A DNA stretch of 64,000 nucleotides from a virus (IMGVR_UViG_3300045012_000181:1-64000); one strand, 5' to 3'. Numbered from the stretch's first letter, positions 8,805 through 32,022 are shown. A program made the numbers and translations. The notes: generated from the letters alone by a model not told the origin.

Positions 8805-9809
8805 CTAGCGCTCCAAGGGATTGTCCCGTCGCCAGCGCGGTTTGAAATCACTACTGGGATCGGCCTGAATTTCCTCGAAGCCCCGGCCCTCTATGAATCG
8901 ACTGAGAATCCAGGCATCCACATCTCCCTCGATGTGTTCGTCCAGCCACGCCAGAAAACCTGTCTTAAGGGCCTGTTTGGAGGGCCACTCCACCGTACTG
9001 GGTCGAGCAGCCGCCAGTTTATATGTGGTGAGCGCTGCCAAGGCCTGCCCCGGTTTGTCCAGCCAGCTGGGCGCACACCGATACTCCACGTGCCCGTTGC
9101 ATTCCCGGACGGCATCGCCGCCGTTTTGGTGACCGTATTTATAGGGCTGGTTTAGCGAGAGCTGCAGCCTTCGAGTGTTTTCCTTGTGCGGCAGGATGTC
9201 CAAATTCAGCAGGCCCGTTGTGACGGCGTTCAGGGCCGCTCTTTGCGAGGGATTAAAACCCCCGATTCCAAAATGCACGTGCCCGCCCAGGGTGTCCAGG
9301 TCGTTGTCCTGAACTGCGGGCTGGACCGGGGTCCCATAGACGGCATTCTGTTGCTGTTGTTGCACGTAGGCCTGTTGACCGGCATTGCTGGCCTGCTGGA
9401 GCGTAAGGCCATATTGCGGCTGGTTGAAGTGCGCAATCCAGGCCTGCAGGGTCGTTGGGTTGGCATGGCCCTGATGTTTCTTGGCACCCAGCGCCCCGCT
9501 CTTCCACTTGAACTTCTCAACCTTATCCAATTCCTGTTGCCGCAGGAGCTTCCAGATATTTATGCACACCACGTAGGCACTCGGGCTTGGAGCCGGCCGG
9601 ACCTCCCAAACCCGGCCATTGTGGTCGCTTCCAATGGAGCCCGCGGCCTTGGAGGTATTGACGGCCAACGGACCCGAATTAGGCACCACCACATCCGGCG
9701 GCGTCATGACGGCCCATTCCGGGTCGGCGCCCAGCAACCAAGGATTTACAACGTCCTTGAGATATTTGGAGGGCAGGTTGTGTTCTCTGAGAGGAATTTC
9801 GTCTGACAA
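8805..9809 (-). CDS. phiEco32-type COOH-NH2 ligase (amidoligase), copy 1
   Basis: At 334 aa it shows the glutamine-synthetase-fold amidoligase signature: LLGADPEWAV near residue 25 (metal-binding Glu), DHNGRVWEVRPAPSPSA near 62 and LGGHVHFGIGGF near 174, followed by a conserved Arg region (EYRCAPSWLD). This family joins a carboxyl to an amine using ATP and was predicted to make peptide-like modifications in phiEco32-like phages. A Gln-rich stretch (QQAYVQQQQQNAVYG) is an odd insertion. It is one of three such proteins in the window (see 15913 and 25597). Confidence 0.85.
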   Translation of the reverse strand: MSDEIPLREHNLPSKYLKDVVNPWLLGADPEWAVMTPPDVVVPNSGPLAVNTSKAAGSIGSDHNGRVWEVRPAPSPSAYVVCINIWKLLRQQELDKVEKFKWKSGALGAKKHQGHANPTTLQAWIAHFNQPQYGLTLQQASNAGQQAYVQQQQQNAVYGTPVQPAVQDNDLDTLGGHVHFGIGGFNPSQRAALNAVTTGLLNLDILPHKENTRRLQLSLNQPYKYGHQNGGDAVRECNGHVEYRCAPSWLDKPGQALAALTTYKLAAARPSTVEWPSKQALKTGFLAWLDEHIEGDVDAWILSRFIEGRGFEEIQADPSSDFKPRWRRDNPLER

Positions 9810-9843
9810 GTTTCACCTCTGGTATTGTTAGAATGCCAAAATT

Positions 9844-10137
9844 CTAGTAAGAATGTCCGCCGGGGTGGTCCAGGGCCCCGTTGCCATCCCAGTTGGATTT
9901 CAGACGGGCCTTGGCCACCTGGCAGTTCTCCAGGATGCACTTCCTGCAACAGCGCACCAGTATGCCCCGCCAGTTGACCCAGCAACAGGGCCTCGTGCCG
10001 TGCTCGTTGCACACCACCTGCGAGCCCGAGAGCTTACTGGGGCCGTTTCGATTCAGGCGCTCAAAGCCAATCTTGACTTCGGGCCAGATGGGCACGAGCT
10101 TGCCATCCTTCTCGACTTTCCAAGCCGTGTTTTTCAT
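9844..10137 (-). CDS. Hypothetical Cys-rich protein (97 aa)
   Basis: Seven cysteines in the middle (CNEHGTRPCC, VRCCRKC and more) predict a metal-binding domain. Stop and start overlaps tie it to the RNA ligase gene upstream. Function unknown. Confidence 0.6.
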   Translation of the reverse strand: MKNTAWKVEKDGKLVPIWPEVKIGFERLNRNGPSKLSGSQVVCNEHGTRPCCWVNWRGILVRCCRKCILENCQVAKARLKSNWDGNGALDHPGGHSY

Positions 10138-11090
10138 TGCGAGGCCTCCGTCGTTGTGGCTTTCTCCAGGGCCTTCTCCAGCAACTTCTGTTTGTAGTAC
10201 TCCGGGAAGCCTCGCAGCACTCCGCGCTCCACATCGTTATAGAACTCCTTCATCAGCCGTTTACTGATGAAATCGTGGTGTTCCATACCGAAGTCCTTCT
10301 TGACTGCACCAATAAGGTAGCCAATATCTTTGGCCTCACCCACCAGCTGGCCTTCATCGCGGGCGTGCTGGATGGCCTTTTCCCAGACGGCCTCTTTGTT
10401 GAAGGTCGCGATTATGCGGTCAATTATGTTGCCTTGCTTCTGCTGGTCCCAGTTGGCCGCGTTCTGTTCCTTGAAGTCATCGGCCACAATCTTGGCCGCG
10501 AGCATCTTGCCGAAGCCATCACAGCGCCCGTAATTCTTTATGACGACGCCCTCTATTCTGGGTCCGCCCAGAAAGCTCTCCCGATTGGCCCAGTTCTCCG
10601 TGTAAAATTTAAGGGCCTCATGCATCGTCAATGTGCCCTCGAAGAGCGTGGGCGCAACCTCCAAGGACCACTTGGCGGCCAGATGGGCCACCTGTCGAGG
10701 CGCCAAGTACATCTCCGAACCGTCCTTCTCGGAAATGTCCCAGATGACCACGTTACCCACCGGGACGCGCTTGTAACTTAGGGTGTTGTGGTGGGGCTTG
10801 TCCAGGCATTCTCCACGAATAACCATGCCTTCGGGAATGGTACCAGTTTGGAAGACCAAATCGGCCGTGCGGACTGCGGCCTTGAACATACCTTCCTGGT
10901 TGCCTCCGTATCCAATCTGCTGGCCCTTGGAGCGGCAGTGCAATTCGCCGTTCAAGTTGCCGAAACTAAACTGCGAACCATCGACCTTCTCTTGAACAAC
11001 GACGGCCCCGGTGAAGAGACCCTGGGCCTGCATGTGCGAGAGTGCCCAAACCTTACTGTAACCGGATAGTTGTGCCACGGTCAGCTCCAA
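10134..11090 (-). CDS. T4 Rnl2-like RNA ligase
   Basis: 318 aa with the nucleotidyltransferase ligase motifs: QEKVDGSQFSFG near residue 33 (motif I, adenylated Lys), GMVIRGECLDKP near 87, IEGVVIKNYG near 177 (motif IV) and GKMLAAKIV near 192 (motif V). It seals nicks in duplex RNA through an AMP-lysine intermediate. The C-terminal 100 residues are helical, as in Rnl2-like ligases. With RtcB and Ro60 elsewhere in the window it forms a set of RNA repair functions. Confidence 0.85.
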   Translation of the reverse strand: MELTVAQLSGYSKVWALSHMQAQGLFTGAVVVQEKVDGSQFSFGNLNGELHCRSKGQQIGYGGNQEGMFKAAVRTADLVFQTGTIPEGMVIRGECLDKPHHNTLSYKRVPVGNVVIWDISEKDGSEMYLAPRQVAHLAAKWSLEVAPTLFEGTLTMHEALKFYTENWANRESFLGGPRIEGVVIKNYGRCDGFGKMLAAKIVADDFKEQNAANWDQQKQGNIIDRIIATFNKEAVWEKAIQHARDEGQLVGEAKDIGYLIGAVKKDFGMEHHDFISKRLMKEFYNDVERGVLRGFPEYYKQKLLEKALEKATTTEASQ

Positions 11091-11914
11091 ATTCCCAAGC
11101 GCAGGCGCGGTTTGGCCTTCTTGTCCGGTTCAACTGCGATTTCGGCCTTGGAGGTCTTATTTGTGGTCTTCTCGGGAGCGTTGTACCAGTCGTCCCCGAC
11201 GGGCTCCAGGCTATCGCGCTTGAATTTCTTTGGAGCAGGGGCTTTTTGCTTCTGAGAGGCCTTGGCCTTATCGAGTTTTGCCACCATGTGCTCATAGAAC
11301 GAGCCGGGAATTGGCGTCGTACTATCAGGCGGTTGGATTTTCCAAGGCGGGGGCGCAGAGGCGTTAAGCAAGACCTCGGTTGCGAATTGCAGGGAGCCCG
11401 CGCCTGCGAGACCCGAACCATACAGCACCTGTGAGGCCCCGGAGGTTATGGCCGGTGCTACTGCTGCAGGGCCCTTGGAGGCCTTCCAGCCCCAACTCCG
11501 GGGATTGCTTAGCGAGTGCTTCCAGCGCCTGTTACGGCTCTCGCGAAAGATCCTCAACTGGCAATAACTCTTGACGTGCTGGGGCAGATTTTCCCATAGC
11601 CATTGCGCCCGGTCCAGCAGGCCCTTGAAGGCCAGTGGGCGTTCGGGCGGCGCAAGGGCAGGCTTCGGACCCAACAGATACTGGCGCTCCGTGCCAAAGG
11701 GTCCGATACGCAGGCCCTTCTTGACGAAGGCCGGTTTACCCAGTCGTATCCACTCATTCTGATCCACCCAGCCCTGTGGTACGGGCGGGGTCGCCGTTCC
11801 AGGCGGGCTATTTTTGGCCAGGGCTTCCATTGCGCGCAGGGCCCGTAGGCCCACATGCGCCGTATGAGGGCCCTCCAGTTCGCAGTGGAACAGAATTCTT
11901 ATCCTATTCGACAC
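11081..11914 (-). CDS. Hypothetical protein (277 aa)
   Basis: Residues 1-130 look folded (RILFHCELEGPHTAHVG; QHVKSYCQLRIFRESRNRRW). The remainder is a Pro/Ala/Lys-rich, probably disordered tail. It lies between the ATP-grasp group and the RNA ligase. No family is recognised. Confidence 0.6.
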   Translation of the reverse strand: MSNRIRILFHCELEGPHTAHVGLRALRAMEALAKNSPPGTATPPVPQGWVDQNEWIRLGKPAFVKKGLRIGPFGTERQYLLGPKPALAPPERPLAFKGLLDRAQWLWENLPQHVKSYCQLRIFRESRNRRWKHSLSNPRSWGWKASKGPAAVAPAITSGASQVLYGSGLAGAGSLQFATEVLLNASAPPPWKIQPPDSTTPIPGSFYEHMVAKLDKAKASQKQKAPAPKKFKRDSLEPVGDDWYNAPEKTTNKTSKAEIAVEPDKKAKPRLRLGIWS

Positions 11915-12047: not shown

Positions 12048-12211
12048 AAATCACGGTCTCCGATAAGATGCCTACTTCGCCAACGTAGTAAGTGCTTCCG
12101 GCAGAAGAATAAAGTGCACCTGCCAACGCCCTTTATGTAGACGTGATGAACCTTCACACTGGGGTGCCAGCCGCAATCCAGTACACAGCAATGGGGTTCA
12201 TTCCCCAACAT
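12044..12211 (-). CDS. Small zinc-finger protein (55 aa)
   Basis: ATG at 12211 overlaps the ATP-grasp stop. Cysteines at about 8, 9, 13, 32 and 37 (CCVLDCGWHP, CTLFFCRKHLL) with histidines form a compact zinc-binding pattern. IKGVGRC is reminiscent of other phage zinc proteins with a YIKGVGR motif. Function unknown. Confidence 0.65.
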   Translation of the reverse strand: MLGNEPHCCVLDCGWHPSVKVHHVYIKGVGRCTLFFCRKHLLRWRSRHLIGDRDL

Positions 12212-12953
12212 TCTTGTCACCATTGCGCCGTGGGCAGCCCAGTCTTTGCCAGTTCCGGATTTTCTCGGCCAGCGATTTGAGTCCGGCCCGGTCTGCTGAT
12301 TCGGCGCCAGGAGCTGTATTCAGCTCCAACAAATAAAACGCTCCATCAACGCCCTTGAGCACATCCACCGCTCCGAAGTCCAGTCCCAACACATCGCAGG
12401 CCTTACTGGCAATCTCCCGCAGGCCCTCGGGCACCAGGGCGCTGTTCATGAGCAAGAAGGCATATCCATTCCGGTGATTTGCGCCCACACGATTACGCCG
12501 GAGGGCCTCTTCGGGCCTTACGAGGCGCTTCTGATAGGTGGCCAGATGTCTCCGGCGATAGACCCAACAGCGATATTCCGTGGCCCGGGGAACATAACGC
12601 GTGTAGAAATCCGACTTGCTAAATATCTCGGCCATCTCCGGTTCCATGATAAGTTTGATGTCCGTGCCGCCATGGTGTTTGAAATTTCGTCCAAGGACCG
12701 GGAAGTCTTCAGCTGCACTGGGCAGTTGGGTAAAGAAGGGCACCGTAAGAAGACCCCCGGCCTTGAACTTCTGGAGCTGCTGGAGTTTGTTGGCCAGACT
12801 TGCTCGCGCATTAAGTGTTGGTTCTGCGCCATTGTGGCCCACACCCCAGCAGACTACCCCCGTACGAGAAGCGCCCTGAGCGCTTCCGACGAGTTCCCGC
12901 AGAAGACTGCCAGTCTTCTCGCAGCCCGCGGCGAATTTGAATTGCAAAGACAT
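12198..12953 (-). CDS. ATP-grasp ligase
   Basis: 251 aa. Motifs of the ATP-grasp fold include a Lys-rich P-loop-like strand, EYRCWVYRRRHLATYQKR, and the metal-binding GAFYLLELNTAPGA near residue 208 (E..NtaPG), as in phage ATP-grasp proteins related to peptide ligases. It would activate a carboxylate as acyl-phosphate for attack by an amine. It is next to the class II glutamine amidotransferase and between two amidoligases, supporting a shared pathway of amide-bond formation. Confidence 0.8.
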   Translation of the reverse strand: MSLQFKFAAGCEKTGSLLRELVGSAQGASRTGVVCWGVGHNGAEPTLNARASLANKLQQLQKFKAGGLLTVPFFTQLPSAAEDFPVLGRNFKHHGGTDIKLIMEPEMAEIFSKSDFYTRYVPRATEYRCWVYRRRHLATYQKRLVRPEEALRRNRVGANHRNGYAFLLMNSALVPEGLREIASKACDVLGLDFGAVDVLKGVDGAFYLLELNTAPGAESADRAGLKSLAEKIRNWQRLGCPRRNGDKNVGE

Positions 12954-12954
12954 T

Positions 12955-13373: not shown

Positions 13374-13388
13374 TTAGAACCTCCCTTG

Positions 13389-13589
13389 TCAGTCGTCGCC
13401 CAAGCCAAAATGCATGAACAGAAAAATTAACGACACCAGCCCGATTATTCCACAAATCACCACGGAATGTGTAACGCGCATGAGGCTGATGAAACGCGTA
13501 AGGGCCTCCGTGAGGAAGCCCGTTGATAGCGCCGTCAGGAGGAATGTGCTGGTGCGGTCTTCGCCTCTAGTCACAGGGATGTGCTCCAT
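13389..13589 (-). CDS. Small membrane protein (66 aa)
   Basis: One or two hydrophobic segments (SVVICGIIGLVSLIFLFMHF) near the C-terminus. The start overlaps the cupin stop by about 20 bases. Function unknown. Confidence 0.5.
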   Translation of the reverse strand: MEHIPVTRGEDRTSTFLLTALSTGFLTEALTRFISLMRVTHSVVICGIIGLVSLIFLFMHFGLGDD

Positions 13590-14028
13590 GCTCCAAAAAG
13601 TATTTGTTGGCTCGTTTAATGCGGCCCTTCACCCAGAAGCCCCACTTCTGCAATTTGGGCCCCGTAACCAGCAGGCTCCAACAACCGCCCTTGGATACCT
13701 CAACGTAGTGCAGCCACTCCTTGGGACGGAATCGAATGGACCTAACTCTCAGGCGTTCACGCCAAATCGGGCCCACATCCGTATAGGAGCCCTTAAGAAT
13801 ACAAGTCACGAAGGCCCAAGGATGATTGTGGAAGTACCTGCTATCGTCGCTGTGCAACCAGTGATGAAGCCTTACAGAAAACCAAGGCGTCTCTAAATAC
13901 CACCGGCGATTGTAGACGCCCGTGGCGCATCGGAGTTCCTCGGCCCAGCGGATTGCGAATCTGGTACGCGGGGGTGGAGTCGAACCGACCTGCCCCTCAG
14001 TTATCATCTGAGTGCTCTCGCTAACCAT
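13567..14028 (-). CDS. Cupin-like small-molecule-binding protein
   Basis: Contains RWYLETPWFSVRLHHWL, SDDSRYFHNHPWAF and LKGSYTDV, then a second half ending in TGPKLQKWGFW: the two-motif cupin pattern of phage sugar-epimerase-like proteins with metal-binding His residues. The first in-frame ATG lies inside the tRNA-Ile gene, and the first 20 or so residues are simply translated tRNA, so the true start is uncertain (no in-frame ATG after the tRNA). Function could be carbohydrate or nucleotide-sugar binding. Confidence 0.65.
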   Translation of the reverse strand: MVSESTQMITEGQVGSTPPPRTRFAIRWAEELRCATGVYNRRWYLETPWFSVRLHHWLHSDDSRYFHNHPWAFVTCILKGSYTDVGPIWRERLRVRSIRFRPKEWLHYVEVSKGGCWSLLVTGPKLQKWGFWVKGRIKRANKYFLEHGAHPCD

Positions 14029-14063: not shown

Positions 14064-14072
14064 ATTGAAAAC

Positions 14073-15167
14073 TCAATTAATACTCATAGAGGCATCCGGC
14101 GCCCCGGCCAGATTGGTATTGCAGCTCTCGCAGGCCAATTGGGCAATGCTTGCAAGCTGGCGGTCCTGTGCGCTGAGTTCCACATGCTTGTTGCACTTCA
14201 CATTAGGGCAGATTACGAACTCGAACAGTTGCGGGTCGCTCTCGTCGCCCGTCGCCGCAGCCGCGGCCTGTATGGGCACCAAACTGTTCACACCCGTGAA
14301 GGTCTTTTCCGTACGTGCGGCCATCAGGGCGCGCTCTTTGCGGTCATGGAAGGAGGTGTTCTTGGAATACTTGGTGTACCCGCCATGGCCCTTGCCATTG
14401 CACTTGAACACGTCGTGCTCCTCCAGGCCCTGTGGGCCGATGATCCATCCGGTCTCGTTGGGCATGGCCACGAAAGACAAATCCGGTGCATGCACCTGCA
14501 TGCTGATGTTGTGCAACTTGATCCAGGGCTTGAGGGCCTTGTGCAGGGCCTCTTTGTTTGAGGCGAAGGCAATGGTATCCCTTGTGGCCCCGATTACCAG
14601 GGGATTGCTATCGCGCAATAACAGGAGCTTGCCCGGGCTGTTCCGGTGGATGGCCGCAACGGCGGCCGTGCCCTCTGCGAGCTGCATTTCCCTGATGAGG
14701 CCCTTGTCGATGCAACCATAGTTGTCTATGAGCGCCCGCAGGGCATCGGAATCCGTGGCGCAAGACCTCTGGAAGGCCGGAAGCTTTTTGTTGCTCTCAA
14801 ACAGCCCATCATCATTGCGAATCATGCCGTTGTGCACGACCAGACTGGCGATCGTGGGCTGCGCAAAGAGCGGATGGTTGTTGGCGATGACCAGCGGTGA
14901 GCCCTTGGTGTAGGCCCGCGTGTGACAGAGCATGATGCGCGTGTGCTCCGAGAGATTCTTATCGGCCCACTTGTGGAAATCCTCGGAGGCCGTGGCGACC
15001 CAGGCCGGACTGGCGCTCTTCCAGGCGAAGACCTTGCCATCCGCATTCATCAACGCAAACCCCGTGGCGTCCGTCCCGCGGGTTTGCAATTCGCAGGCCA
15101 TCTCCTGCAGTTGCCACTTTCGAATGGGGCGTTTGCCCAATCTGTAAATTCCGCCGATCCCGCACAT
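14073..15167 (-). CDS. Class II glutamine amidotransferase (Ntn hydrolase)
   Basis: 364 aa beginning MCGIGGIY with the catalytic Cys2. RGTDATGFALMN near residue 32, LCHTRAYTKG near 81, NNHPLF near 95 and VVHNGMIRND near 110 are class II glutaminase motifs. The domain releases ammonia from glutamine. The C-terminal 100 residues are Ala/Gln-rich with a CPNVKC...CESC zinc pattern. No synthetase domain is fused, so partners in trans (the ATP-grasp or amidoligase proteins nearby) are likely. The phiEco32-like amidoligase cluster includes such a protein. Confidence 0.85.
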   Translation of the reverse strand: MCGIGGIYRLGKRPIRKWQLQEMACELQTRGTDATGFALMNADGKVFAWKSASPAWVATASEDFHKWADKNLSEHTRIMLCHTRAYTKGSPLVIANNHPLFAQPTIASLVVHNGMIRNDDGLFESNKKLPAFQRSCATDSDALRALIDNYGCIDKGLIREMQLAEGTAAVAAIHRNSPGKLLLLRDSNPLVIGATRDTIAFASNKEALHKALKPWIKLHNISMQVHAPDLSFVAMPNETGWIIGPQGLEEHDVFKCNGKGHGGYTKYSKNTSFHDRKERALMAARTEKTFTGVNSLVPIQAAAAATGDESDPQLFEFVICPNVKCNKHVELSAQDRQLASIAQLACESCNTNLAGAPDASMSIN

Positions 15168-15170
15168 TAG

Positions 15171-15644: not shown

Positions 15645-15647
15645 ACG

Positions 15648-15911: not shown

Positions 15912-15912
15912 G

Positions 15913-17451
15913 TTAGAGGCCGGCCCGCTCCAGAAGTATTTTGGGCCCACTGGGACCCTCCAGAGCCTTGAGCCGGGCCTTCCATAAGTCGTAACTGTTG
16001 TTGCGCACGCCCTCCAAGCTCCAGATGGGCAAGGCACCGCTCTCAACAATGATGGTCCGGGCCTTCAGGAACAGTTCCAGACTGAAATCCTTGGTAGCGC
16101 CCAGTTGGATGTTGCCGGGTTCCGTGCTTATAACCGCGACGCAGCGGGCCTCGGAGAGCTTCTCCAGCAGACCCGAACGCTTGATGGCCTTGGACATATT
16201 CACTGGGAACCTGAAGGCCGCGCCCTTGTGACCACAGTTGGTGAATTGCAGGGGCTGGTTTTTGTGCATAACGAGGCCCATACAAAACTCCCCAAGGCCC
16301 GGTGCCAGTTTGGTGTCCACCTGGCTGATGCAGTGCAAGTAGCCCTCGGGCAATTCAGAGGGCCAGGTAGGTTTCAGCGGGCCCGTTTCCGGTGGTCGGT
16401 CCTCAAACATCGAGCAAGCCAATTCACGCTCTTCGGTGTCTAGAGATGGTACGGTCTCGGGCTGCACCAAGGGCAGACTCTCGACTGCGCCCGTGCGGTC
16501 CAGCGGTCCCCGAGGATATACGCCCCAGGCGCTCTTGAAGTCCATGCCCGAGGCGTGCCCGGGCCAGCCCCGGCGGTTCAAAATGGCAAAGGCCAATCGC
16601 GCATCGTCGTCGAGCGGGCTGTAATACGCCAGGATAAGCCTAAGCTGGCCGCGAGCCTGTTCAGCGCTGAGGCTGGCATCGGCCTCAGACAGAGGCGCCA
16701 CCAAATCCGGAAAGGCAACAACGAGCTTTGCCAATACAAGGTTAAAGTACGCCAGCCAAGGCCCATCAATCCAGCTGGGTAGCGTGCGATATTCGTAGCC
16801 ATGCGGCTGCTTGCGCACATCGCCCAGTGCGCCGTAGGGCTGACCCGCAGGTGCGCCCTGAGCCTGCCGAACACGCAGGCGGCCTTCCTCTTTGTCAAAC
16901 AGGCCAGCCACGAACTGCAAATGCGTAAGTCTATCAAGACAAGCGACCTCTCTTTCACGCAATTTTTCGCGTTTGCGCCCGAAGTGCACATGTCCGCCCA
17001 GGCCATCGCCCTCGTAGTAGCCGCCGGAACGCCAGCTGTAGCCCAGCGTGGGCGGATGGTACAAAACCATCCAGCGCATGGCCAGCCACATCGAGGTTAG
17101 CACCGAAAGGGCACTCCGGCTGGGATGCGGGCGCAGTTCACAAAGGCGGCCGTTGTTGTCCGCACCGAAGGCCGGTCCGGCCTTCAGGCCCAGTGCTCGG
17201 GCATCGCAGCGCTGCAGGCCATCATGGAACACAAACTCCGGATCGGCTCCGAGCATGAAGTGATTGACCAAACGGCCCTCTACGGGCAGCGGACCGTCGG
17301 GCGCCTTATAGAGCCTTCTGTACCAGCGCTCCAGGCGTTGTGGCGGAAGTTGTTGCTGCCATGGCGCGGGAACATCCGAAGCTCGGGTCCAGCCCTTGAG
17401 GAGCGCTTCTCTTAAAAGCTCAGACCTTAATTTTTGCAGCTCTACGCTCAT
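15913..17451 (-). CDS. phiEco32-type amidoligase (copy 2) with an extra C-terminal domain
   Basis: 512 aa. Residues about 65-300 have the amidoligase signature: FMLGADPEFVF near 67, DNNGRLCELRPHPSRSA near 98 and GLGGHVHFGRKRE near 152, then YEYRTLPSW. Residues about 360-512 form an additional alpha/beta domain (YLHCISQVDTKLAPG; RCVAVISTEPGNIQLG) that copies 1 and 3 lack. It may select the amine or carboxyl partner. The family ligates COOH to NH2 with ATP. The end overlaps the next gene's Cys-rich protein. Confidence 0.82.
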   Translation of the reverse strand: MSVELQKLRSELLREALLKGWTRASDVPAPWQQQLPPQRLERWYRRLYKAPDGPLPVEGRLVNHFMLGADPEFVFHDGLQRCDARALGLKAGPAFGADNNGRLCELRPHPSRSALSVLTSMWLAMRWMVLYHPPTLGYSWRSGGYYEGDGLGGHVHFGRKREKLREREVACLDRLTHLQFVAGLFDKEEGRLRVRQAQGAPAGQPYGALGDVRKQPHGYEYRTLPSWIDGPWLAYFNLVLAKLVVAFPDLVAPLSEADASLSAEQARGQLRLILAYYSPLDDDARLAFAILNRRGWPGHASGMDFKSAWGVYPRGPLDRTGAVESLPLVQPETVPSLDTEERELACSMFEDRPPETGPLKPTWPSELPEGYLHCISQVDTKLAPGLGEFCMGLVMHKNQPLQFTNCGHKGAAFRFPVNMSKAIKRSGLLEKLSEARCVAVISTEPGNIQLGATKDFSLELFLKARTIIVESGALPIWSLEGVRNNSYDLWKARLKALEGPSGPKILLERAGL

Positions 17452-19314: not shown

Positions 19315-19561
19315 CTCGGCCCGTCCAGTAGAAGGTGTCTTCCAGGGCATCGTAGATTGTCATGGCGTCCTGGGGATTCTCGAACTCCTGGGCTTGATGC
19401 TCGGAAACGTATATGAAGTTATGCCCGCACCAGTTCCTGAGGGCCTGCCAGAACCTGGTGTCGGGATTTTGTTGACAGTAGGCCACAAACGAGGCCAAGA
19501 CCTTGCTGTTCCGGCTGGTACCCAGTTGGACCTGCAGGCGTTTTCGAAGGCTTTCGCTCAA
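19307..19561 (-). CDS. Hypothetical conserved phage protein (84 aa)
   Basis: Contains ASFVAYCQQNPDTRFWQALR and NWCGHNFIYVS, a pattern recognisable in many phage early proteins. It overlaps both neighbours. Function unknown. Confidence 0.7.
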   Translation of the reverse strand: MSESLRKRLQVQLGTSRNSKVLASFVAYCQQNPDTRFWQALRNWCGHNFIYVSEHQAQEFENPQDAMTIYDALEDTFYWTGRDG

Positions 19562-20217
19562 AATGGCACCGCCTTGAATTCAGGGTCCTCAGGTGCTTCT
19601 GGAGGCTCGGGCAGCTGCGCGCCCACAACCACGCCATCCTCCACGACCATCGGGGCGGGTTTTGGACGCCGAAGCTTCTTGGCAAACTGCTTCAGATACC
19701 ACTCGTAATAGGCATCCAGCTCTTCCACCTTAAGGGTCTTCTTCTGACTATAGAGGCGCATACCGCCTACGCGCTTGATGTGCAGCGGGCGCACGAAGGC
19801 CTCTATGATCTCAACCTGCGGAGGCGGGATGTGCGGATGGTAGGCCGTGAAGGCCCCGCAGCCCACGGCTTGCTTGGCGCGATTGTGCTTCTGTGTGACG
19901 TAGCCCAATAGGCCTCCGCGGTCAAAAGTGGCCTGAAACATGTCAAAAATCAACACACCGGGCTGGCGGGCCTTCTGCATGAAATTGCGCGCCTCCAGGG
20001 CCCGTAGTCTATTGGGCTTGCCGATGTAGTGGTGTGTCTGGAAGCCCTCGAATTTCATGTGCCCCTGCGCATCATGGCCCAAATTCACCAGCTTGATGTA
20101 CCAGGCCACTCTTGTCGGGAAAAGTTTCCCGGGCATGGGCAGCGGTCGACGGGCGGCCTCCAGTTTGGGCGCCTTATCCACCAGGCGCTTGATGTGCTGC
20201 AGGGTGAAATATCGCAT
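19558..20217 (-). CDS. Hypothetical protein (219 aa)
   Basis: Alpha/beta protein with GVLIFDMFQATFDRGGLLGY near residue 86 and a Pro/Glu-rich C-terminal tail. No catalytic motif is certain. It is in the same overlapping gene string as the HisRS-like protein. Confidence 0.6.
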   Translation of the reverse strand: MRYFTLQHIKRLVDKAPKLEAARRPLPMPGKLFPTRVAWYIKLVNLGHDAQGHMKFEGFQTHHYIGKPNRLRALEARNFMQKARQPGVLIFDMFQATFDRGGLLGYVTQKHNRAKQAVGCGAFTAYHPHIPPPQVEIIEAFVRPLHIKRVGGMRLYSQKKTLKVEELDAYYEWYLKQFAKKLRRPKPAPMVVEDGVVVGAQLPEPPEAPEDPEFKAVPF

Positions 20218-20234: not shown

Positions 20235-21038
20235 TTAGCAGGGCGTGCCCCATGTGGCCTCTTCGTCCAATTCGTCCTGTGGGGGCAACTCGCCAAAGGG
20301 CCCCTTGGAACCCGCTTGCAATTGCGCCTTCAGGGCCCACTGCCTGTACTGCTGAAAACCCTGCAGCTGCACATTGAAATTGAACTTCCAGCGCGAATAG
20401 CAGTTGCTGTCATCGCACATGGGAATGCCCCAGTGCGCATTGGAGGTCTCCTGCTTGCAGGCAAAACAGTAACGTTGGGTCTTGCTGGACAACTTGGCAT
20501 ATCTATAGAGCGCAGTCAGGTGCAATTTGCAGGAGCTCTTGTTGTGATGTTCGAGCATCTTGTCTCGCCCCCGGAACAGTACCTGACACCAACGGCAGGT
20601 GCCCTCGTTGAGCGCGGAATAGTTCAAAGAGAAGCCCTTCCAATAGCGGTAATCATCATTGATGAGATTGCCCTTGGGCACCAGGCTCTTCTGTGAGACC
20701 TGTTGTTGGGACTTCTGGAGCTGGCCCTTGCGGCGCGATTTGGCGATGGCCTTGTCGAAGATGGCCTGTTCATCCGCGGTCTTGGGCCGGTAGTGCGCCG
20801 GCAAGGGACTGTAGCCCCCGGAATCCCAAGAGGGCCTAGCCGGGCTGAAGGGCACGATATGGCTACCGTGGATGACTTCTCGCTTGCCACCTCGGGGACG
20901 ATGGCCACCACGCTTCTTGATGGCCTGTAGTGCCCAGGCGGGCGGATCAATCTCACCGAATTTAAAACTGTCGAAAACCGGGAACTCCGTCAGGAAATCC
21001 CTCTCGTCCAAATCAAAAGGCTTGGGATGTCGGGGCAC
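20235..21038 (-). CDS. Hypothetical protein with zinc-binding motifs (267 aa)
   Basis: CRWCQVLFRGRDKMLEHH near residue 165 and CFACKQ...CDDSNCY near 211 look like two zinc fingers. The first half is Pro/Gly/Lys-rich. Its start lies inside the end of the HisRS-like gene, so the two are probably co-translated. Function unknown. Confidence 0.6.
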   Translation of the reverse strand: MPRHPKPFDLDERDFLTEFPVFDSFKFGEIDPPAWALQAIKKRGGHRPRGGKREVIHGSHIVPFSPARPSWDSGGYSPLPAHYRPKTADEQAIFDKAIAKSRRKGQLQKSQQQVSQKSLVPKGNLINDDYRYWKGFSLNYSALNEGTCRWCQVLFRGRDKMLEHHNKSSCKLHLTALYRYAKLSSKTQRYCFACKQETSNAHWGIPMCDDSNCYSRWKFNFNVQLQGFQQYRQWALKAQLQAGSKGPFGELPPQDELDEEATWGTPC

Positions 21039-21651
21039 TTAGATTCTCCTGTCGCACCAGCAGTAATCGGTCCAAGCCAATGGCCCAGCCTTGACCCTCG
21101 GCGTACGGGCCCCCTCCGGCCACTTGCAAGCCCCCGGCCCAGACCTCGAAGCCCTTCTGGGTGTAGTAGGCCTGACCACGTTCCACTTCCAAGCGCCATT
21201 CCCAGTTCTTCAGACCTAACTGGTCTAAACACAGCGCCAACAAATTTCGTAACTCCGCCGGGGATGTGATGGCAGGCATCTCCTCGATGCCAAACTGCCA
21301 GAATTCCCTCCAGCGTCCGCGTTGGGGCCGGTCATAGCGGTAACAACGCTGGCAGTACCAGAGTCTAAGAGGCTTGGGCAGTCTTTGGTCGCCAACCCAG
21401 TGTTCTCGGAATTGCTGCCTTAGAACCGCGGTGACCTCGGGCAACAAAACCTCCCGTCGGCCCGAGCGTTCGGTACTTAATTCAAAGGCCCGGTTGTCGC
21501 CAATTTGGCCCTGAAAGAGTTCCAAACTCTGTAGTGAGCTGACCACCGCGGGCTCGAAGCTGGCCTTCTCAACTACCAGACGAAGTTGAGTCTGGGCATC
21601 CAGCAGTTCCCGGGCCTCGGGGCCCATTAACAAGCGAGTACCTCGAACCAT
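21013..21651 (-). CDS. Stand-alone HisRS-like class II aminoacyl-tRNA synthetase core
   Basis: 212 aa with class II core motifs: VRGTRLLMGPEARELL (HisRS-like motif 1 region), YRYDRPQRGRWREFWQFGIE near residue 105 (motif 2, ATP-binding Arg) and GGGPYAEGQGWAIGLDRLLL near 180 (motif 3). It lacks the anticodon-binding domain and is half the size of HisRS, so it is a HisZ-like or aminoacyl-ligase-like paralogue. It might charge or activate an amino acid for the amidoligase pathway; that is inference. Confidence 0.8.
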   Translation of the reverse strand: MVRGTRLLMGPEARELLDAQTQLRLVVEKASFEPAVVSSLQSLELFQGQIGDNRAFELSTERSGRREVLLPEVTAVLRQQFREHWVGDQRLPKPLRLWYCQRCYRYDRPQRGRWREFWQFGIEEMPAITSPAELRNLLALCLDQLGLKNWEWRLEVERGQAYYTQKGFEVWAGGLQVAGGGPYAEGQGWAIGLDRLLLVRQENLSAPTSQAF

Positions 21652-23826: not shown

Positions 23827-24315
23827 TTATAGAGTTTTGCCCATTACAAGAACGGTGTGCCCTGTCCGCTTGTTCTTGAATTTGGACAATTCTTCCCATT
23901 TGTGGTCACTGAGAATGGCAATCTCGGGTTTGTTGTCCGCGAGTACAGTGGCCTGAGCGTAAGTGTAACCGGCTTTGCGGGCGGCTTCTTCACGCAACTC
24001 CAACAACAGGCCTCCAAGCCCACGCTTCTGGAAGTCCGTGGCAACGCTACAGTGGTAAAAGACGGCCACCCCGCAACAGCCCGGCAACTCGCTCACTGAG
24101 AACTGAGAAATCTGGGCGTACTTTCCTGCCCCGTATGTGGCTAGTACGAAGGTATCTTCCTTGGTAACTTCAATGATAGGTTCACTTCCAACAATCTTAC
24201 GAATATCATCTCGGAAGCTCGCTGCTGCAGCAGCCACGGCCTGATTCCGCGAGAGACTGTATTCCCTCACGGTCGTGGCCTTGGCCATTGGTTTGTAGCT
24301 GTTGTCGTCGCCCAT
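23827..24315 (-). CDS. GNAT-family N-acetyltransferase
   Basis: ATG at 24315 follows AAGGAGAAAACA. The 162-aa product has the GNAT core: CGVAVFYHCSVATDFQKRGLGG (acetyl-CoA-binding Q/RxxGxG/A variant KRGLGG) then LLELREEAARKAGYTYAQA. The C-terminus is basic. The substrate is unknown. Its position in the amidoligase-rich region suggests a tailoring role. Confidence 0.8.
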   Translation of the reverse strand: MGDDNSYKPMAKATTVREYSLSRNQAVAAAAASFRDDIRKIVGSEPIIEVTKEDTFVLATYGAGKYAQISQFSVSELPGCCGVAVFYHCSVATDFQKRGLGGLLLELREEAARKAGYTYAQATVLADNKPEIAILSDHKWEELSKFKNKRTGHTVLVMGKTL

Positions 24316-24337
24316 TGTTTTCTCCTTGAAATAGAAA

Positions 24338-24730
24338 TCAACCACCAAACATCCCACCACCGTGGCCGTACCAGTCCTTGGACTGCGCCGGAGTCATGGC
24401 CTGGCCGCGGTTCTTACGCCACAGCGCAGATTTCGTGCAGGCCTGCAGCCCACAAGTCCACACATTGTCCTTCTCATCCCACTTGACAGCGGGATAGCCG
24501 CATTCGCAAATGCGGTTTAGGAATATATAACCCAGGCCCTGACAAAAATCACAAGCGGGCATGGCGCTTCTGTAGTAGCCCTTAAAGCGCCCCCGAGGGT
24601 GTTTGCCGTTGGGCCCTTGGCCCATTTGATTGTCCGGGCGGTCTGCCAAACCGGGCGTCCGGGTGCAGTTGGGACAGGGGCGCATATGCGCGATGTTTTC
24701 CTGAATGTCTTTGAGCGGGGCCTTACTCAT
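24338..24730 (-). CDS. DnaJ-type zinc-finger-like protein (130 aa)
   Basis: Four cysteine knuckles: CPNC near residue 19, CDFCQGLGYIF near 60 (CxxCxGxG of DnaJ type), CECG near 74 and CGLQAC near 92. Gly/Gln-rich C-terminus. Probably a scaffold or RNA-associated zinc protein. Confidence 0.65.
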   Translation of the reverse strand: MSKAPLKDIQENIAHMRPCPNCTRTPGLADRPDNQMGQGPNGKHPRGRFKGYYRSAMPACDFCQGLGYIFLNRICECGYPAVKWDEKDNVWTCGLQACTKSALWRKNRGQAMTPAQSKDWYGHGGGMFGG

Positions 24731-24873
24731 CTAGTGCTCCGGATATCTTCGTGTACCGTGTTGGCAAACCACGCGCCTATAATCATAACCGTGCACAGAC
24801 GCCAGTTGCCCTCACCGGCAAACACCAATGCACAGCCCGTACAGAAGCCACTAAGGCCCCGCCAGTATGTCAC
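24727..24873 (-). CDS. Small membrane protein (48 aa)
   Basis: GTG at 24873 overlaps the cyclotransferase stop (GTGA) and its own stop overlaps the next start. One hydrophobic segment around GFCTGCALVFAG and LCTVMIIGAWF. Function unknown. Confidence 0.55.
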   Translation of the reverse strand: MTYWRGLSGFCTGCALVFAGEGNWRLCTVMIIGAWFANTVHEDIRSTR

Positions 24874-25265
24874 GTGGCAACCCCGGGCCACCGCCCATGC
24901 GGCAATTTGCGCGCCCAACTGTAGGGCAGGCGGTCCAGGCCCTCGTAGACCCAGCAGCTCAAGGGCGCAACCATGCCTGCAGTTCCAGAGCCATCTTGGC
25001 CCCAGTGGTATGCCAAGATTTTAGTTCTTTTGTACAGAAGCTCATACCAATCTTGTAGGTCCAGAACGCCTCGACTAACCTCGTAGATTTCACCATGAAC
25101 AATGTGCTCGGAATCCCGTCGGAGTAAAGGGAAATCCATCCCTGGACCCCTGAACTGGAACAACTGCCCTTTAACAACGGCCTTGGTTATGTACTTGGAA
25201 CCAAAAAGGCGCCAGTGGTTGCGCTGGTTGCGCATCAGGGTGCCATAAACCATTAGAAGGCTCAT
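24870..25265 (-). CDS. Gamma-glutamylcyclotransferase (AIG2-like), copy 1
   Basis: 131 aa starting MSLLMVYGTLMRNQRNH: the YGTLxxN substrate loop of the GGCT fold. Then GQLFQFRGPGMDFPLLRRD, HGEIYEVS and LDLQDWYE match the fold; the catalytic Glu would be in the HGEIYEV strand region. It cyclises gamma-glutamyl amines to 5-oxoproline. A second copy lies at 31618. Such enzymes are part of the phiEco32-like amidoligase sets and may release or edit gamma-glutamyl products. Confidence 0.82.
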   Translation of the reverse strand: MSLLMVYGTLMRNQRNHWRLFGSKYITKAVVKGQLFQFRGPGMDFPLLRRDSEHIVHGEIYEVSRGVLDLQDWYELLYKRTKILAYHWGQDGSGTAGMVAPLSCWVYEGLDRLPYSWARKLPHGRWPGVAT

Positions 25266-25597
25266 CCCAAATCTCCCTTGGCTTTTTGCACGGCTCTAAA
25301 CAACCTAGTGAAGACCTTTGAGGGCTTGCCTTTTACAGATGCCAACATGGCCTCGCTTGCGCGCAGCAGTTCAGGTGCTGCAATCCTCAGGTGGCTGTTC
25401 GCTTCTAGCTTTTCCCTGTACATCGTCATATTGGGGTTGCTTAAGTGGTCGAAAATTTCCCGCAGAATATTTCCGCAGCCCAAACAGGGTTGGTGGCAGG
25501 CCATGTTGGCCAAGTAGACCAAACAAGCCGTACGCAGTTCCAATAATTCCAAGGCGCTGTCGCGTTCCGCCTCGGCGCTTGTCAGCTCGTCACACAT
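25262..25597 (-). CDS. Hypothetical helical protein (111 aa)
   Basis: The start at 25597 (MCDELTSAEAERD) coincides with the stop of the amidoligase. Mainly helical, with MACHQPCLGCGNI, a possible metal site. Function unknown. Confidence 0.6.
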   Translation of the reverse strand: MCDELTSAEAERDSALELLELRTACLVYLANMACHQPCLGCGNILREIFDHLSNPNMTMYREKLEANSHLRIAAPELLRASEAMLASVKGKPSKVFTRLFRAVQKAKGDLG

Positions 25598-26781
25598 CAG
25601 CCTAGGTCTTTCCACGCGGGCACCTGTGTCCACAGCCCGCCCACCTGCCAGTCCTGTACGACATCCAAGCCCCAGCCCCCGATGACCTTGTCCAGCCCGC
25701 CCTCAATGGCCGCCCAGAAGGCCTTCTCGGAACCGTACATCAAGCGCGCCCACTGGGTGTAAAACTCCCGGTTAAGTTTCATGAAGTCCTTGGCGCTGCG
25801 CACATCGCCGTAATTGATGGTATCCCGGATGCTCTGTTCGCGGTCCGCGCCTACGAAGATGCCCCGAAATCGGGCCCGGCCAATATTCAAGGCATGTCGA
25901 GCCAAGTCGAACACCAGCATGAAAGCCCTGGGATGCATCAGCCAAAAGTTCGATAGCGTCCGGTACTCCAGCCCATGTGGCGGCAGGCGAAATTCCCCGG
26001 CCAGACCGTAGTATCTGCGCCTGATAAAGTGGTCATAATTCTGCGCCAGGGCCACACAGGGAATGCCCAGCAGGGCATCCAGGGTCTTAACCAGATAGCG
26101 GATGTTCTCGATTTCGCGCTCTTCCTCCGGCAACTCAAAATGCACATGCCCCCCGGCGAAACGCCAGTTGAGGCAGCGGGGACGCTCCACACGCCGACCA
26201 CTGGAACCGTAGGCATTCCGGCTGGGGTCGCAACCCAGTGAGACGTGGGCCTCCGAGGCCAGCTGGAGCATGATGGGCGGAACACGCCAGACGCTCTGTG
26301 GGGCGATGTTGAGGCCCTTCTGGGCGAGGGCCTGCAGTTGCCGGCCAATCTGCTGGGCCAAGATGGCATGGCACTTGATTTTGTGGGCCTTGCAGCTCGC
26401 CGTGCACCACTTATAACAGGCCTTCGGGTCCACGGTGGTTTCGGCCTGAAAGCCATCCCAGAATAGGCCATCCGTGGTGCCATGCTTGTCCGGCAGGAAG
26501 TCAAAAGCCGGAACAACTTGGCGTTCGCCATTCAGGCGCAGGAAAAATTCCGGATCGGTGCCCATAACGGGCTCCACGCCATAACAAGTATCGATGCCTT
26601 CAACGGCCGCCGTCAAAGAAGGCACACGGGGCGTCAGCCCGGCCCTAACGGGACCAGACTTAACCCTGATGGGTCTGAGGCCCTTCTCGGCGAAGAGCAT
26701 GTCCTTCTTTAAGAACCATACATCTTGGCCGTAGCGCTGGCCCAATTTGGGCCCTTGTGGGGAATTTCGTGCCAGGTCCAT
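25597..26781 (-). CDS. phiEco32-type amidoligase, copy 3
   Basis: 394 aa: GTDPEFFLRL near residue 75, DGFQAETTVDPKAC near 107 and AGGHVHFELPEEE near 208 followed by LEYRTLSNFWL. These are the metal and nucleotide sites of the glutamine-synthetase-like amidoligase fold. The tail AAIEGGLDKVIGGWGLD is glycine-rich. It sits with a gamma-glutamylcyclotransferase, which supports a gamma-glutamyl or peptide amide product. Confidence 0.82.
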   Translation of the reverse strand: MDLARNSPQGPKLGQRYGQDVWFLKKDMLFAEKGLRPIRVKSGPVRAGLTPRVPSLTAAVEGIDTCYGVEPVMGTDPEFFLRLNGERQVVPAFDFLPDKHGTTDGLFWDGFQAETTVDPKACYKWCTASCKAHKIKCHAILAQQIGRQLQALAQKGLNIAPQSVWRVPPIMLQLASEAHVSLGCDPSRNAYGSSGRRVERPRCLNWRFAGGHVHFELPEEEREIENIRYLVKTLDALLGIPCVALAQNYDHFIRRRYYGLAGEFRLPPHGLEYRTLSNFWLMHPRAFMLVFDLARHALNIGRARFRGIFVGADREQSIRDTINYGDVRSAKDFMKLNREFYTQWARLMYGSEKAFWAAIEGGLDKVIGGWGLDVVQDWQVGGLWTQVPAWKDLG

Positions 26782-28476: not shown

Positions 28477-28966
28477 CGGGCCCTCCTTCGGAAATCATGG
28501 CGTCAATCAGTTGGTCTATCGCAGTCCTCGTGGCAATGCCCGCAGCAGCTGGGTTCGGGCCTTCTGACGGGACAGAGGCAGTCGTCGACGAATTCGTCAG
28601 TGACGAGGCCGGTTCGGATGTTGATGTTCCCGACTCGGGGGCCTTTATAGCCTCTGGCGCAGGTTTTACAAGCACCGGTCCCTTGACATCTGTCGCACAT
28701 ACCAGCTCCTTTTCGGCCAGCTCAAGGGCCAGCAGGGCGCTCTCGGCCTCGGCCCATTGGAAATCACAGCCCTCTCGGCCGCACTCCGTCACCACGGAAT
28801 ACCTATCGCCAAAGGCCGCGTAACAGCCACAGGAGGCCCAGACCACAATCAAGTCCGGCAGGCTCTGATGGCGCTCGGCCACGTAGCCCTCTTGATGTGT
28901 TGGAGCGGGCATCTTATCGGAGAGTTGTGCGGCCTGGGAAATGCGGGCCTTCTCGGTGGCGTTCAC
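28436..28966 (-). CDS. Hypothetical protein (176 aa) with an embedded overlapping gene
   Basis: The N-terminal half (to about residue 90) looks folded, with ASCGCYAAF and TECGREGCDF cysteines. The second half is Ser/Thr/Pro/Ala-rich and covers a credible zinc-finger gene in another frame (28503-28700). Either this is a true overlap with a disordered tail or the frame ends earlier. Confidence 0.5.
   Translation of the reverse strand: MNATEKARISQAAQLSDKMPAPTHQEGYVAERHQSLPDLIVVWASCGCYAAFGDRYSVVTECGREGCDFQWAEAESALLALELAEKELVCATDVKGPVLVKPAPEAIKAPESGTSTSEPASSLTNSSTTASVPSEGPNPAAAGIATRTAIDQLIDAMISEGGPVDVPPNGALPEET
28503..28700 (-). CDS. DnaJ-like zinc-finger protein in an alternative frame (65 aa)
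   Basis: MCDRCQGTGACKTCARGYKG has the CxxCxGxG knuckle, and CLCPVRRPEPSCCGHC closes the site. The pattern is too regular for a shadow frame. It overlaps entirely with the low-complexity half of the 28436-28966 frame. Confidence 0.6.
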   Translation of the reverse strand: MCDRCQGTGACKTCARGYKGPRVGNINIRTGLVTDEFVDDCLCPVRRPEPSCCGHCHEDCDRPTD

Positions 28967-29181
28967 TAGGAGGGTTCCTCCATGTGCGCGACCTCAACCA
29001 CCAGTTTGAGTTTGTCCTCGGCCCAACCTCTATATATGCGCGCATCCCTTTGAAGATCCTCGATTAGGGCCATTCGGGCCTTTCGAAAACTGGGATAGCC
29101 CGAACCGCTGGATAGGCTTTCACCGGGCTGCAACTTGTCTATACGAGGCGGTGTGCTAACAAAATACCAAATCTCCTTCAC
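28966..29181 (-). CDS. Hypothetical protein (71 aa)
   Basis: A short beta/alpha protein (YPSFRKARMALIEDLQ) with an acidic C-terminus. Coupled by ATGA to the gene upstream. Function unknown. Confidence 0.6.
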   Translation of the reverse strand: MKEIWYFVSTPPRIDKLQPGESLSSGSGYPSFRKARMALIEDLQRDARIYRGWAEDKLKLVVEVAHMEEPS

Positions 29182-29567: not shown

Positions 29568-29573
29568 AGGCCT

Positions 29574-30494: not shown

Positions 30495-30496
30495 CT

Positions 30497-31298: not shown

Positions 31299-31300
31299 GT

Positions 31301-31420
31301 TTAGAACCTCTCTTGTTTCTGGTAGTGTTCAGTCAGGCAGTTGTAAACCACCCCGATTAGCGCCGCGAACGCAATTCCACCTACTAGGAGCTCCGGGATG
31401 TGTTCAACAAACCAGCTCAC
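31301..31420 (-). CDS. Small membrane protein (39 aa)
   Basis: GTG at 31420 follows AGGAGGTTCCGAA. One transmembrane helix (LLVGGIAFAALIGVVYN). Function unknown. Confidence 0.6.
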   Translation of the reverse strand: MSWFVEHIPELLVGGIAFAALIGVVYNCLTEHYQKQERF

Positions 31421-31431
31421 TTCGGAACCTC

Positions 31432-31614
31432 CTATTGCGAATTCGCACTGGGACACAGGCCCTGTTTATAACAGCGCGCCTCACAGGCCCTATCTTGGGG
31501 ACAACGGTTGTTGCACAGGTTGGCGTCGTGGACACTGAAGACAATCAACAGTAGCCATCCCGCCAGTAGCACCAAAAAGATTGCCACACCCTTCATGAAA
31601 TTCTGGAAGCTCAA
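31432..31614 (-). CDS. Small membrane protein with Cys-rich periplasmic tail (60 aa)
   Basis: N-terminal transmembrane helix (AIFLVLLAGWLLLIVFSV), then five cysteines within 25 residues (LCNNRCPQDRACEARC, GLC). Disulfide-bonded outer part likely. Possibly a lysis or superinfection function; not demonstrable. Confidence 0.6.
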   Translation of the reverse strand: MSFQNFMKGVAIFLVLLAGWLLLIVFSVHDANLCNNRCPQDRACEARCYKQGLCPSANSQ

Positions 31615-31617
31615 GGC

Positions 31618-32022
31618 CTACTTCCAATCCTTAACGTTATAGTTACCGTCCGGTATGCGCCTATCGGCGCTGTGCAATTTGCGCTGGTAAAAATAGGCCT
31701 GACATTCGCCAAAGTTGGGCGTCTGGATGGGCTCACGTTTGTACATCCAGGGGTGGCCCTCTATGGAGTCAAGGCGCGCCAAGAGGGCATCTCCGACTTC
31801 GTAGACTTCGCCTTGAACTACGTCCTCCGGGCCTTCGGCCGGGCGCAATGCCGGATAGGAGCCCAAGTGATAAAGCTGGCCGGGGAAAGTCGTCTCGCCC
31901 AAGAAGCGGGCGCTCTGCATGTTGTGTGCCAATTTTCCGCCCTTTTTTAGCGAGCCGTAGACACAGATTCTTACTCCTGTCCTTGAGGGATTGGCCAGAA
32001 ATTCGGGACTTTGTGTTTCCAT
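31618..32022 (-). CDS. Gamma-glutamylcyclotransferase, copy 2
   Basis: ATG at 32022 (AGAGGAGAAC upstream) is preferred to a longer frame that runs into rtcB. 134 aa: VRICVYGSLKKGGKLAHN (YGxLxxG loop), GQLYHLGSYPALRPAEG and VQGEVYEVGDALLARLD with the catalytic Glu, ending in AYFYQR. Typical GGCT fold and length. It differs clearly from copy 1, so each may have its own substrate. Confidence 0.85.
   Translation of the reverse strand: METQSPEFLANPSRTGVRICVYGSLKKGGKLAHNMQSARFLGETTFPGQLYHLGSYPALRPAEGPEDVVQGEVYEVGDALLARLDSIEGHPWMYKREPIQTPNFGECQAYFYQRKLHSADRRIPDGNYNVKDWK

What the first reader, a model, noticed from the sequence alone, without database searches (positions are those of the whole stretch)
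8805..32022. Three amidoligases with ATP-grasp, glutaminase, GNAT, HisRS-like and two GGCT enzymes
Seen: amidoligases at 8805, 15913 and 25597; ATP-grasp at 12198; class II glutamine amidotransferase at 14073; HisRS-like at 21013; GNAT at 23827; gamma-glutamylcyclotransferases at 24870 and 31618. Known: phiEco32-like phages have a smaller set predicted to form peptide or amide modifications. Three amidoligases and a synthetase core are a richer set. Inference: a multi-step biosynthesis of a gamma-glutamyl-type compound or protein tag.
Basis: partly seen in the sequence, partly recalled or inferred. Interest (0 to 1): 0.75.

Follow-up and report, generated by a model that had tools for sequence, protein, structure and literature searches.

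The report
Expanded phage amide-bond-making gene cassette
This virus of bacteria carries an enlarged, order-conserved set of enzymes that join molecules through amide bonds, a richer version of a cassette predicted years ago in phages such as phiEco32 whose product nobody has yet identified.

Summary
In detail: all nine named genes are real, on the minus strand of a 125.6-kb phage record. Three ligases (C 25597, B 15913, A 8805) belong to Pfam COOH-NH2_lig; models of C and B match gamma-glutamylcysteine ligase, glutamine synthetase and PafA/Dop. Ligases, glutaminase and ATP-grasp keep their catalytic motifs.

In 16 of 16 other viral loci carrying B, genes lie on one strand in the same order: C, Zn-finger protein (20235), B, class II glutaminase, ATP-grasp. 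A follows in 12, GNAT is present in 10, a GGCT in at least 7. Eleven of eleven sampled named phages carry C, glutaminase and ATP-grasp; phiEco32 and LUZ24 use a different second ligase (PF12224), absent here. So this is an enlarged variant of a published cassette, called a 'peptidoglycan modification cassette' without biochemical proof.

The HisRS-like gene does not belong: it is a 212-aa minimal HisRS core, absent from the 21 other cassette contigs checked, found in 45 other viral contigs and often near tRNA-His genes.

Likely function: stepwise ATP-driven assembly of a peptide-like amide-linked group on an unknown acceptor.

The parts
25597..26781 (-). Ligase C, GS/GCS-fold COOH-NH2 ligase; the widespread one (LUZ24 gp16, phiEco32 gp86)
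   Evidence: Pfam PF14395 5.9e-15; phrog_3815 1.6e-30; model pTM 0.74, best PDB match GshF Z 15.0, GshA 13.6-13.8; present in 16/16 loci
24870..25265 (-). GGCT-like protein 1, close to C; catalytic Glu position is Asp
   Evidence: Pfam GGACT 9.6e-15; alignment A2
23827..24360 (-). GNAT acyltransferase (start more likely 24315)
   Evidence: Pfam PF00583 4.2e-5; homologue in the cassette region of 10/16 loci
20235..21038 (-). Conserved protein with two probable Cys/His zinc sites, always upstream of B
   Evidence: 16/16 loci; invariant C148 C151 H164 C170 C191 C194 C208 C213; no Pfam match over cut-off, no PHROG match
19558..20217 (-). Conserved protein of unknown function between the Zn protein and B
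   Evidence: 11/16 loci; no Pfam match over cut-off, no PHROG match
15913..17451 (-). Ligase B, COOH-NH2 ligase with C-terminal extension
   Evidence: Pfam PF14395 1.2e-17; model matches Dop Z 14.2, PafA 14.1, YbdK-type 13.2, GCL 12.9
14073..15167 (-). Class II glutamine amidotransferase with N-terminal Cys (MCGI) and C-terminal Cys-rich ribbon
   Evidence: Pfam GATase_6 5.6e-13; 16/16 loci; start sequence
12198..12953 (-). RimK-like ATP-grasp ligase
   Evidence: phrog_2599 1.8e-20; invariant E-x-R, K, D and E-x-N; best NCBIfam RimK S6--glutamate ligase 2.9e-5, below cut-off
11081..11914 (-). Protein with low-complexity tail downstream of ATP-grasp; tentative member of conserved family T (possible acceptor)
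   Evidence: Family T recovered by leave-one-out for 11 of 14 sequences at E<1e-5, but this copy was not; placed by position and a visible N-terminal motif
9844..10137 (-). Small Cys/His protein just upstream of A; similar small proteins lie there in relatives
   Evidence: position and C-x2-H ... C-x2-C pattern; weak alignment
8805..9809 (-). Ligase A, third COOH-NH2 ligase
   Evidence: Pfam PF14395 7.5e-8; pairwise hits 3e-22 and 3e-19 to A of G009 and G006; 12/16 loci; motifs DPE, GGHVHF, EYR kept
31618..32022 (-). GGCT 2, intact D-x-x-E-G; upstream of C
   Evidence: Pfam GGACT 1.5e-22; a match of this type inside the cassette in 7/16 loci
21013..21651 (-). Minimal HisRS-like core, judged not part of the pathway
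   Evidence: Pfam 8.6e-9; hisS 4.8e-27, under cut-off; 0/16 loci, 0/9 contigs

Best explanation
The region holds an enlarged variant of the phage amide-ligase cassette known from phiEco32, LUZ24 and Pseudoalteromonas podoviruses. Shown here: the genes belong together, keep one order and one strand, and the ligases, glutaminase and ATP-grasp keep their catalytic motifs. Inferred: the glutaminase frees ammonia from glutamine (or cleaves a glutamyl amide); ligases C, B and A each activate a carboxylate with ATP, as gamma-glutamylcysteine ligase, glutamine synthetase and PafA do, and join it to an amine; the RimK-like ATP-grasp adds a further residue; the GNAT caps an amine; GGCT removes gamma-glutamyl groups. 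Together they would build a short peptide-like, amide-linked group, step by step and early in infection, on an acceptor that is not known: a cell-wall precursor peptide or a protein are the best candidates. The HisRS-like gene is a separate translation or tRNA gene.
For: Co-conservation: 16/16 viral loci with B carry C, the Zn protein, B, GAT and ATP-grasp in one order and strand within 8-15 kb; A in 12, GNAT in 10. Eleven of eleven sampled named phages with C also have GAT and ATP-grasp, mostly also GGCT. Folds: C matches GshF/GshA (Z 13.6-15), B matches Dop/PafA (Z 14.1-14.2), both match glutamine synthetase. Motifs: DPE, GGHxH and EYR present in A, B and C and in most relatives; ATP-grasp E-x-N; GAT starts MCG. 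Peptide chemistry: a relative has an M19 dipeptidase just before two ATP-grasp genes; a bacterial relative of the ligase lies beside cotE, a spore coat gene.
Against: No biochemistry was found for any member. The acceptor and the amine are unknown. Models have middling confidence (pTM 0.74 and 0.62) and B's tail is poorly predicted. GGCT and GNAT are not universal. In this genome unrelated-looking genes (peptide deformylase, RNA ligase, cupin, HisRS) are interleaved, and one GGCT lacks the catalytic Glu.
Confidence: 0.72

Rival explanations
1. Peptidoglycan precursor modification: the cassette adds unusual amide links to stem peptides so that other phages or lysis enzymes cannot act. This is the published prediction, and a specific form of the best explanation.
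For: PMC5498523 describes a seven-gene cassette with two amidoligases, ATP-grasp, GGCT and GAT in Pseudoalteromonas podoviruses as peptidoglycan modification; PMC10580990 repeats the superinfection idea for phiEco32. Ligases that act on gamma-glutamyl links fit the gamma-D-Glu of stem peptides (own knowledge).
Against: No peptidoglycan-binding, membrane or lipid-carrier protein was identified in the conserved set. The claim rests on prediction only.
Confidence: 0.3
2. Protein tagging: B (PafA/Dop-like) and the RimK-like ligase attach residues to a host or phage protein, perhaps to family T encoded next to the ATP-grasp.
For: B's top structural matches are Dop and PafA; nearest ATP-grasp families are alpha-glutamate ligases; family T sits beside ATP-grasp across loci and has a low-complexity tail.
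Against: The Dop/PafA lead over other ligases is about 1 Z unit; no Pup-like protein ending in GGE/GGQ in 6-33 kb; T of this genome is not recovered by leave-one-out; T was not found in the sampled named phages.
Confidence: 0.28
3. Free small molecule: the enzymes make or recycle a soluble gamma-glutamyl amine or peptide, as in glutathione, ergothioneine or gamma-glutamyl polyamine pathways, or simply move nitrogen into amino acids.
For: C resembles GshA/GshF; GGCT acts on gamma-glutamyl compounds; PMC10945688 suggests nitrogen metabolism for phage ZRK32.
Against: Several dedicated ligases plus Zn-finger proteins are more than nitrogen assimilation needs; no complete known pathway is recognisable.
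Confidence: 0.25
4. DNA base hypermodification of the phage genome through an amide-linked side chain.
For: Large phage with many biosynthetic enzymes; complex side chains occur in some phage bases (own knowledge).
Against: No thymidylate-synthase-type hydroxymethylase (PF00303) in this genome or in six others searched; no base-transfer enzymes were recognised among the proteins scanned.
Confidence: 0.05
5. Coincidental clustering of unrelated metabolic genes.
For: Some genes here are interleaved with unrelated ones.
Against: Same order and strand in 16/16 loci at about 30-40% identity.
Confidence: 0.03

Closest known systems
phiEco32 / LUZ24 / tf amide-ligase cassette (phiEco32 gp77-gp86; LUZ24 gp16-gp22); in Pseudoalteromonas podoviruses called 'peptidoglycan modification cassette' (PMC5498523)
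   Same: C, class II GAT and RimK-like ATP-grasp are homologous; same gene order and early-strand position; GGCT present.
   Different: No PF12224 amidoligase here. Instead two further COOH-NH2 ligases A and B, plus GNAT, a double Zn-site protein, 19558 and probably T, which were not found in the named phages examined.
Pup ligase PafA / depupylase Dop
   Same: Fold of B (Z 14.1-14.2).
   Different: About 7-12% identity over the aligned part; no Pup-like protein found.
Gamma-glutamylcysteine ligase GshA / GshF
   Same: Fold of C (Z 13.6-15).
   Different: About 10% identity; no glutathione pathway seen.
RimK family alpha-glutamate ligases
   Same: Nearest curated ATP-grasp families.
   Different: Far below their cut-offs; shorter, 251 aa.
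Histidyl-tRNA synthetase (for the 21013 gene)
   Same: Class II core and histidine-pocket motifs RG..YY and GGG.Y.
   Different: 212 aa; no insertion or anticodon domain.

Membership tests
phiEco32/LUZ24-type amide-ligase cassette | COOH-NH2_lig PF14395 (ligase C) | tested here: met
phiEco32/LUZ24-type amide-ligase cassette | class II GAT and RimK-like ATP-grasp downstream on the same strand | tested here: met
phiEco32/LUZ24-type amide-ligase cassette | GGCT | tested here: met
   one of two copies keeps the catalytic Glu
phiEco32/LUZ24-type amide-ligase cassette | second ligase of the PF12224 Amidoligase_2 family between C and GAT | tested here: not met
   PF12224 absent from G000, found in phiEco32 and LUZ24; the position holds B. 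So it is a variant, not filed as a strict member
phiEco32/LUZ24-type amide-ligase cassette | alters host peptidoglycan | not testable with these tools
   prediction only in PMC5498523 and PMC10580990
Pup-PafA tagging | PafA/Dop fold | tested here: met
   top rows within about 1 Z of other ligases, and a shared fold shows no function
Pup-PafA tagging | small disordered tag ending in GGE/GGQ | tested here: not met
   none in 6-33 kb
Histidyl-tRNA synthetase | class II core with motifs 2 and 3 and histidine-binding motifs | tested here: met
Histidyl-tRNA synthetase | insertion domain and C-terminal anticodon-binding domain | tested here: not met
   212 aa against about 420; alignment skips the middle and ends after motif 3
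Histidyl-tRNA synthetase | charges tRNA-His | not testable with these tools
   20 of 46 relatives lie within about 6 kb of a tRNA-His gene

The most novel reading that the evidence does not exclude
A phage-encoded protein-tagging system: PafA-like ligase B, ligases A and C and a RimK-like ligase build an amide-linked chain on a dedicated phage acceptor protein (family T) or on host proteins, with GNAT and GGCT capping and trimming it. No Pup-like tag is involved, so it would be a new modification.
Probability: 0.12. Interest if true: 0.85.

Novelty: new variant of a known kind. Interest (0 to 1): 0.52.

Why it matters
Hundreds of sequenced phages, including model phages of E. coli and Pseudomonas, carry the core of this cassette (299 records match ligase C and 249 match the ATP-grasp), yet its product is unknown. 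The enlarged version narrows the search: it shows which genes always travel together, adds two ligases, an acyltransferase and conserved Zn-finger proteins, and separates the HisRS gene from the pathway. Finding the product would reveal a new phage-made modification of cell wall, protein or metabolite and a likely role in host takeover or exclusion of rival phages.

Tried and rejected
HisRS as supplier of activated amino acid: dropped, because it is absent from 9/9 and 16/16 cassette loci, no cassette gene was found near 46 mini-HisRS loci, and it sits by tRNA-His or RNA ligases elsewhere. Pup-like or graspetide-like precursor: none convincing (one match to the loose graspetide pattern, at 28914-29045, lies outside the cassette and is unsupported). 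DNA hypermodification: no PF00303 enzyme. Anti-phage defence: no PADLOC match. RNA element: no Rfam match in the window. Small ORFs sharing an N-terminal MPLEIL motif in G008 were considered as precursors, but no conserved core was seen; left open. T as acceptor: the identity contrast between N-terminus and tail was too small to prove a leader/core design (23% against 20%), and G000's copy failed leave-one-out. LUZ24 gp17 and phiEco32 gp85 share the position of 20235 but no detectable homology. Single-sequence searches with B found no relative in viral contigs or named phages; the alignment was needed. Iyer 2009 and Hardies 2013 are not held, so they are known here only through citing papers.

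Full report
CHECK OF THE OBSERVATION. The window is bases 1-64,000 of a 125,606-bp virus record. Its ends share a 133-bp repeat with one mismatch, so the record is probably complete. Early genes lie on the minus strand up to about 54 kb; terminase, portal and capsid genes follow on the plus strand.

CATALYTIC STATE. A, B and C all keep G-x-DPE, GGHVHF and EYR, and most relatives keep them too. The ATP-grasp keeps E-x-R, a Lys, an Asp and E-x-N. The amidotransferase starts MCGI, with the expected nucleophile Cys at position 2. GGCT at 31618 keeps D-x-x-E-G; the one at 24870 has Asp where the catalytic Glu is expected.

FOLDS. The model of C (pTM 0.74, core pLDDT about 80-94) matches bifunctional glutathione synthetase GshF (Z 15.0), GshA (13.6-13.8), YbdK (13.7), glutamine synthetases (about 12-13) and PafA (12.8). 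The model of B (pTM 0.62, weak tail) matches Dop (14.2), PafA (14.1), a YbdK-type ligase (13.2) and plant GCL (12.9). Rows within 1 Z are tied. The fold is therefore the glutamine synthetase / GCS / PafA one, which supports ATP-driven amide formation but does not name a substrate.

Searching with C gave nine viral contigs. All carry the cassette core: PF14395 genes in 9/9, GATase_6 in 9/9 and ATP-grasp in 9/9. Searching with an alignment of B gave 16 viral loci, four of them in the same contigs as before and two nearly identical to each other. In 16/16, C, the Zn-finger protein homologous to 20235, B, GAT and ATP-grasp lie on one strand in that order within 8-15 kb; A follows in 12, the 19558 homologue in 11, GNAT is present in 10 and a GGCT in at least 7. 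Of the four loci without A, one (L064) is cut by the contig end soon after the ATP-grasp. The gene order of the window fits this pattern. Among named phages, C, GAT and ATP-grasp occur together in 11/11 that I sampled: phiEco32, LUZ24, tf, CVT22, GAP52, Slicky01, MW202615, T5S1, T2S2, Lbo-JY46 and ZRK32.

WHAT DIFFERS FROM THE KNOWN CASSETTE. LUZ24 and phiEco32 have one COOH-NH2 ligase plus one PF12224 amidoligase. The window's genome has no PF12224 gene; the position between C and GAT is held by B, and A is added after the ATP-grasp. B has no match among 50,697 named phage records by tblastn. GNAT was not found in LUZ24 or phiEco32. The Zn-site protein (20235), 19558 and family T were not found in the named phages and have no Pfam match over cut-off and no PHROG match.

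NEW CONSERVED NEIGHBOURS. 20235 has eight invariant Cys/His residues that suggest two zinc sites. Directly after the ATP-grasp most loci carry a protein (family T) with a conserved start and a Pro/Ala/Gly-rich tail. Leave-one-out profiles recover 11 of 14 at E<1e-5, but not the window's own 11081-11914, which is placed by position and a visible motif only. T is a candidate acceptor, nothing more.

THE HisRS-LIKE GENE. It is a 212-aa class II core that keeps the histidine-pocket motifs RG..YY and GGG.Y and the motif 2 and motif 3 arginines, but has no insertion or anticodon domain. It is absent from all cassette relatives. The same minimal form occurs in Sinorhizobium phage Phosso, two genes from tRNA-His, in two huge phages (in one directly between two RNA ligases, in the other followed by one), and in 45 viral contigs; 20 of 46 loci have tRNA-His within about 6 kb. 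The genome in hand has no tRNA gene but does have two RNA ligases and a TROVE protein. I assign this gene to translation or tRNA repair.

PROPOSED MECHANISM (inferred). GAT supplies ammonia or cleaves a glutamyl amide; C, B and A form amide bonds through acyl phosphates; the RimK-like enzyme adds another residue; GNAT caps; GGCT trims gamma-glutamyl groups. The product is a peptide-like group on an unknown acceptor. The published guess is peptidoglycan and superinfection exclusion (PMC5498523; PMC10580990); another paper suggests nitrogen metabolism (PMC10945688). None of these papers tests the enzymes. A bacterial relative of the ligase beside cotE and an M19 dipeptidase in one viral cassette agree with peptide chemistry. 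DNA modification is unlikely.

VERDICT. Real, co-inherited, enlarged variant of a known predicted cassette with an unknown product.

Noticed in passing
window 21013-21651 and loci L147-L191, L048, L049, L050: A family of minimal HisRS-like proteins (about 145-260 aa as called) in 45 viral contigs and several jumbo phages, often near tRNA-His; keeps histidine-binding motifs but lacks insertion and anticodon domains.
   Followed up: partly
window 36003-37451 and 37455-38315: NAMPT-like nicotinamide phosphoribosyltransferase and a PRPP-synthetase-like gene, an NAD salvage pair; GAP52, Slicky01 and Lbo-JY46 carry a similar pair near the amide-ligase cassette.
   Followed up: no
window 10134-11090, 32033-33205, 39687-41081: RNA repair genes: PF09414 RNA ligase, RtcB, and a TROVE/Ro60-like protein with vWA domain, in a phage without tRNA genes.
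   Followed up: no
window 18001-18645: Peptide deformylase (2.3e-13), 214 aa, inside the cassette region.
   Followed up: no
window 13567-14028: Small cupin-like protein matching phrog_4786 'cysteine dioxygenase' (2.9e-30) between GAT and ATP-grasp; not found in the 16 related cassettes at E<1e-3.
   Followed up: partly
window 33202-33960: Lipase class 3-like protein (1.4e-19) next to the RtcB gene.
   Followed up: no
L011 12771-13721 (G008): M19 membrane dipeptidase directly before two tandem ATP-grasp ligases in a related cassette.
   Followed up: partly
L031/L032 (G008): Several small ORFs of one phage share the N-terminus MPLEIL-x-N-K with different downstream sequences, perhaps a repeated translation-start element.
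   Followed up: no
L067, L075 (and probably other loci of L067-L146): Paenibacillaceae-type genomes carry a PF14395 ligase next to mutS; in Ammoniphilus (L075) it lies between cotE and mutS.
   Followed up: partly
record G000 101546-111115 (outside the window): A 3,189-aa protein at the end of the late genes, likely a giant virion protein.
   Followed up: no
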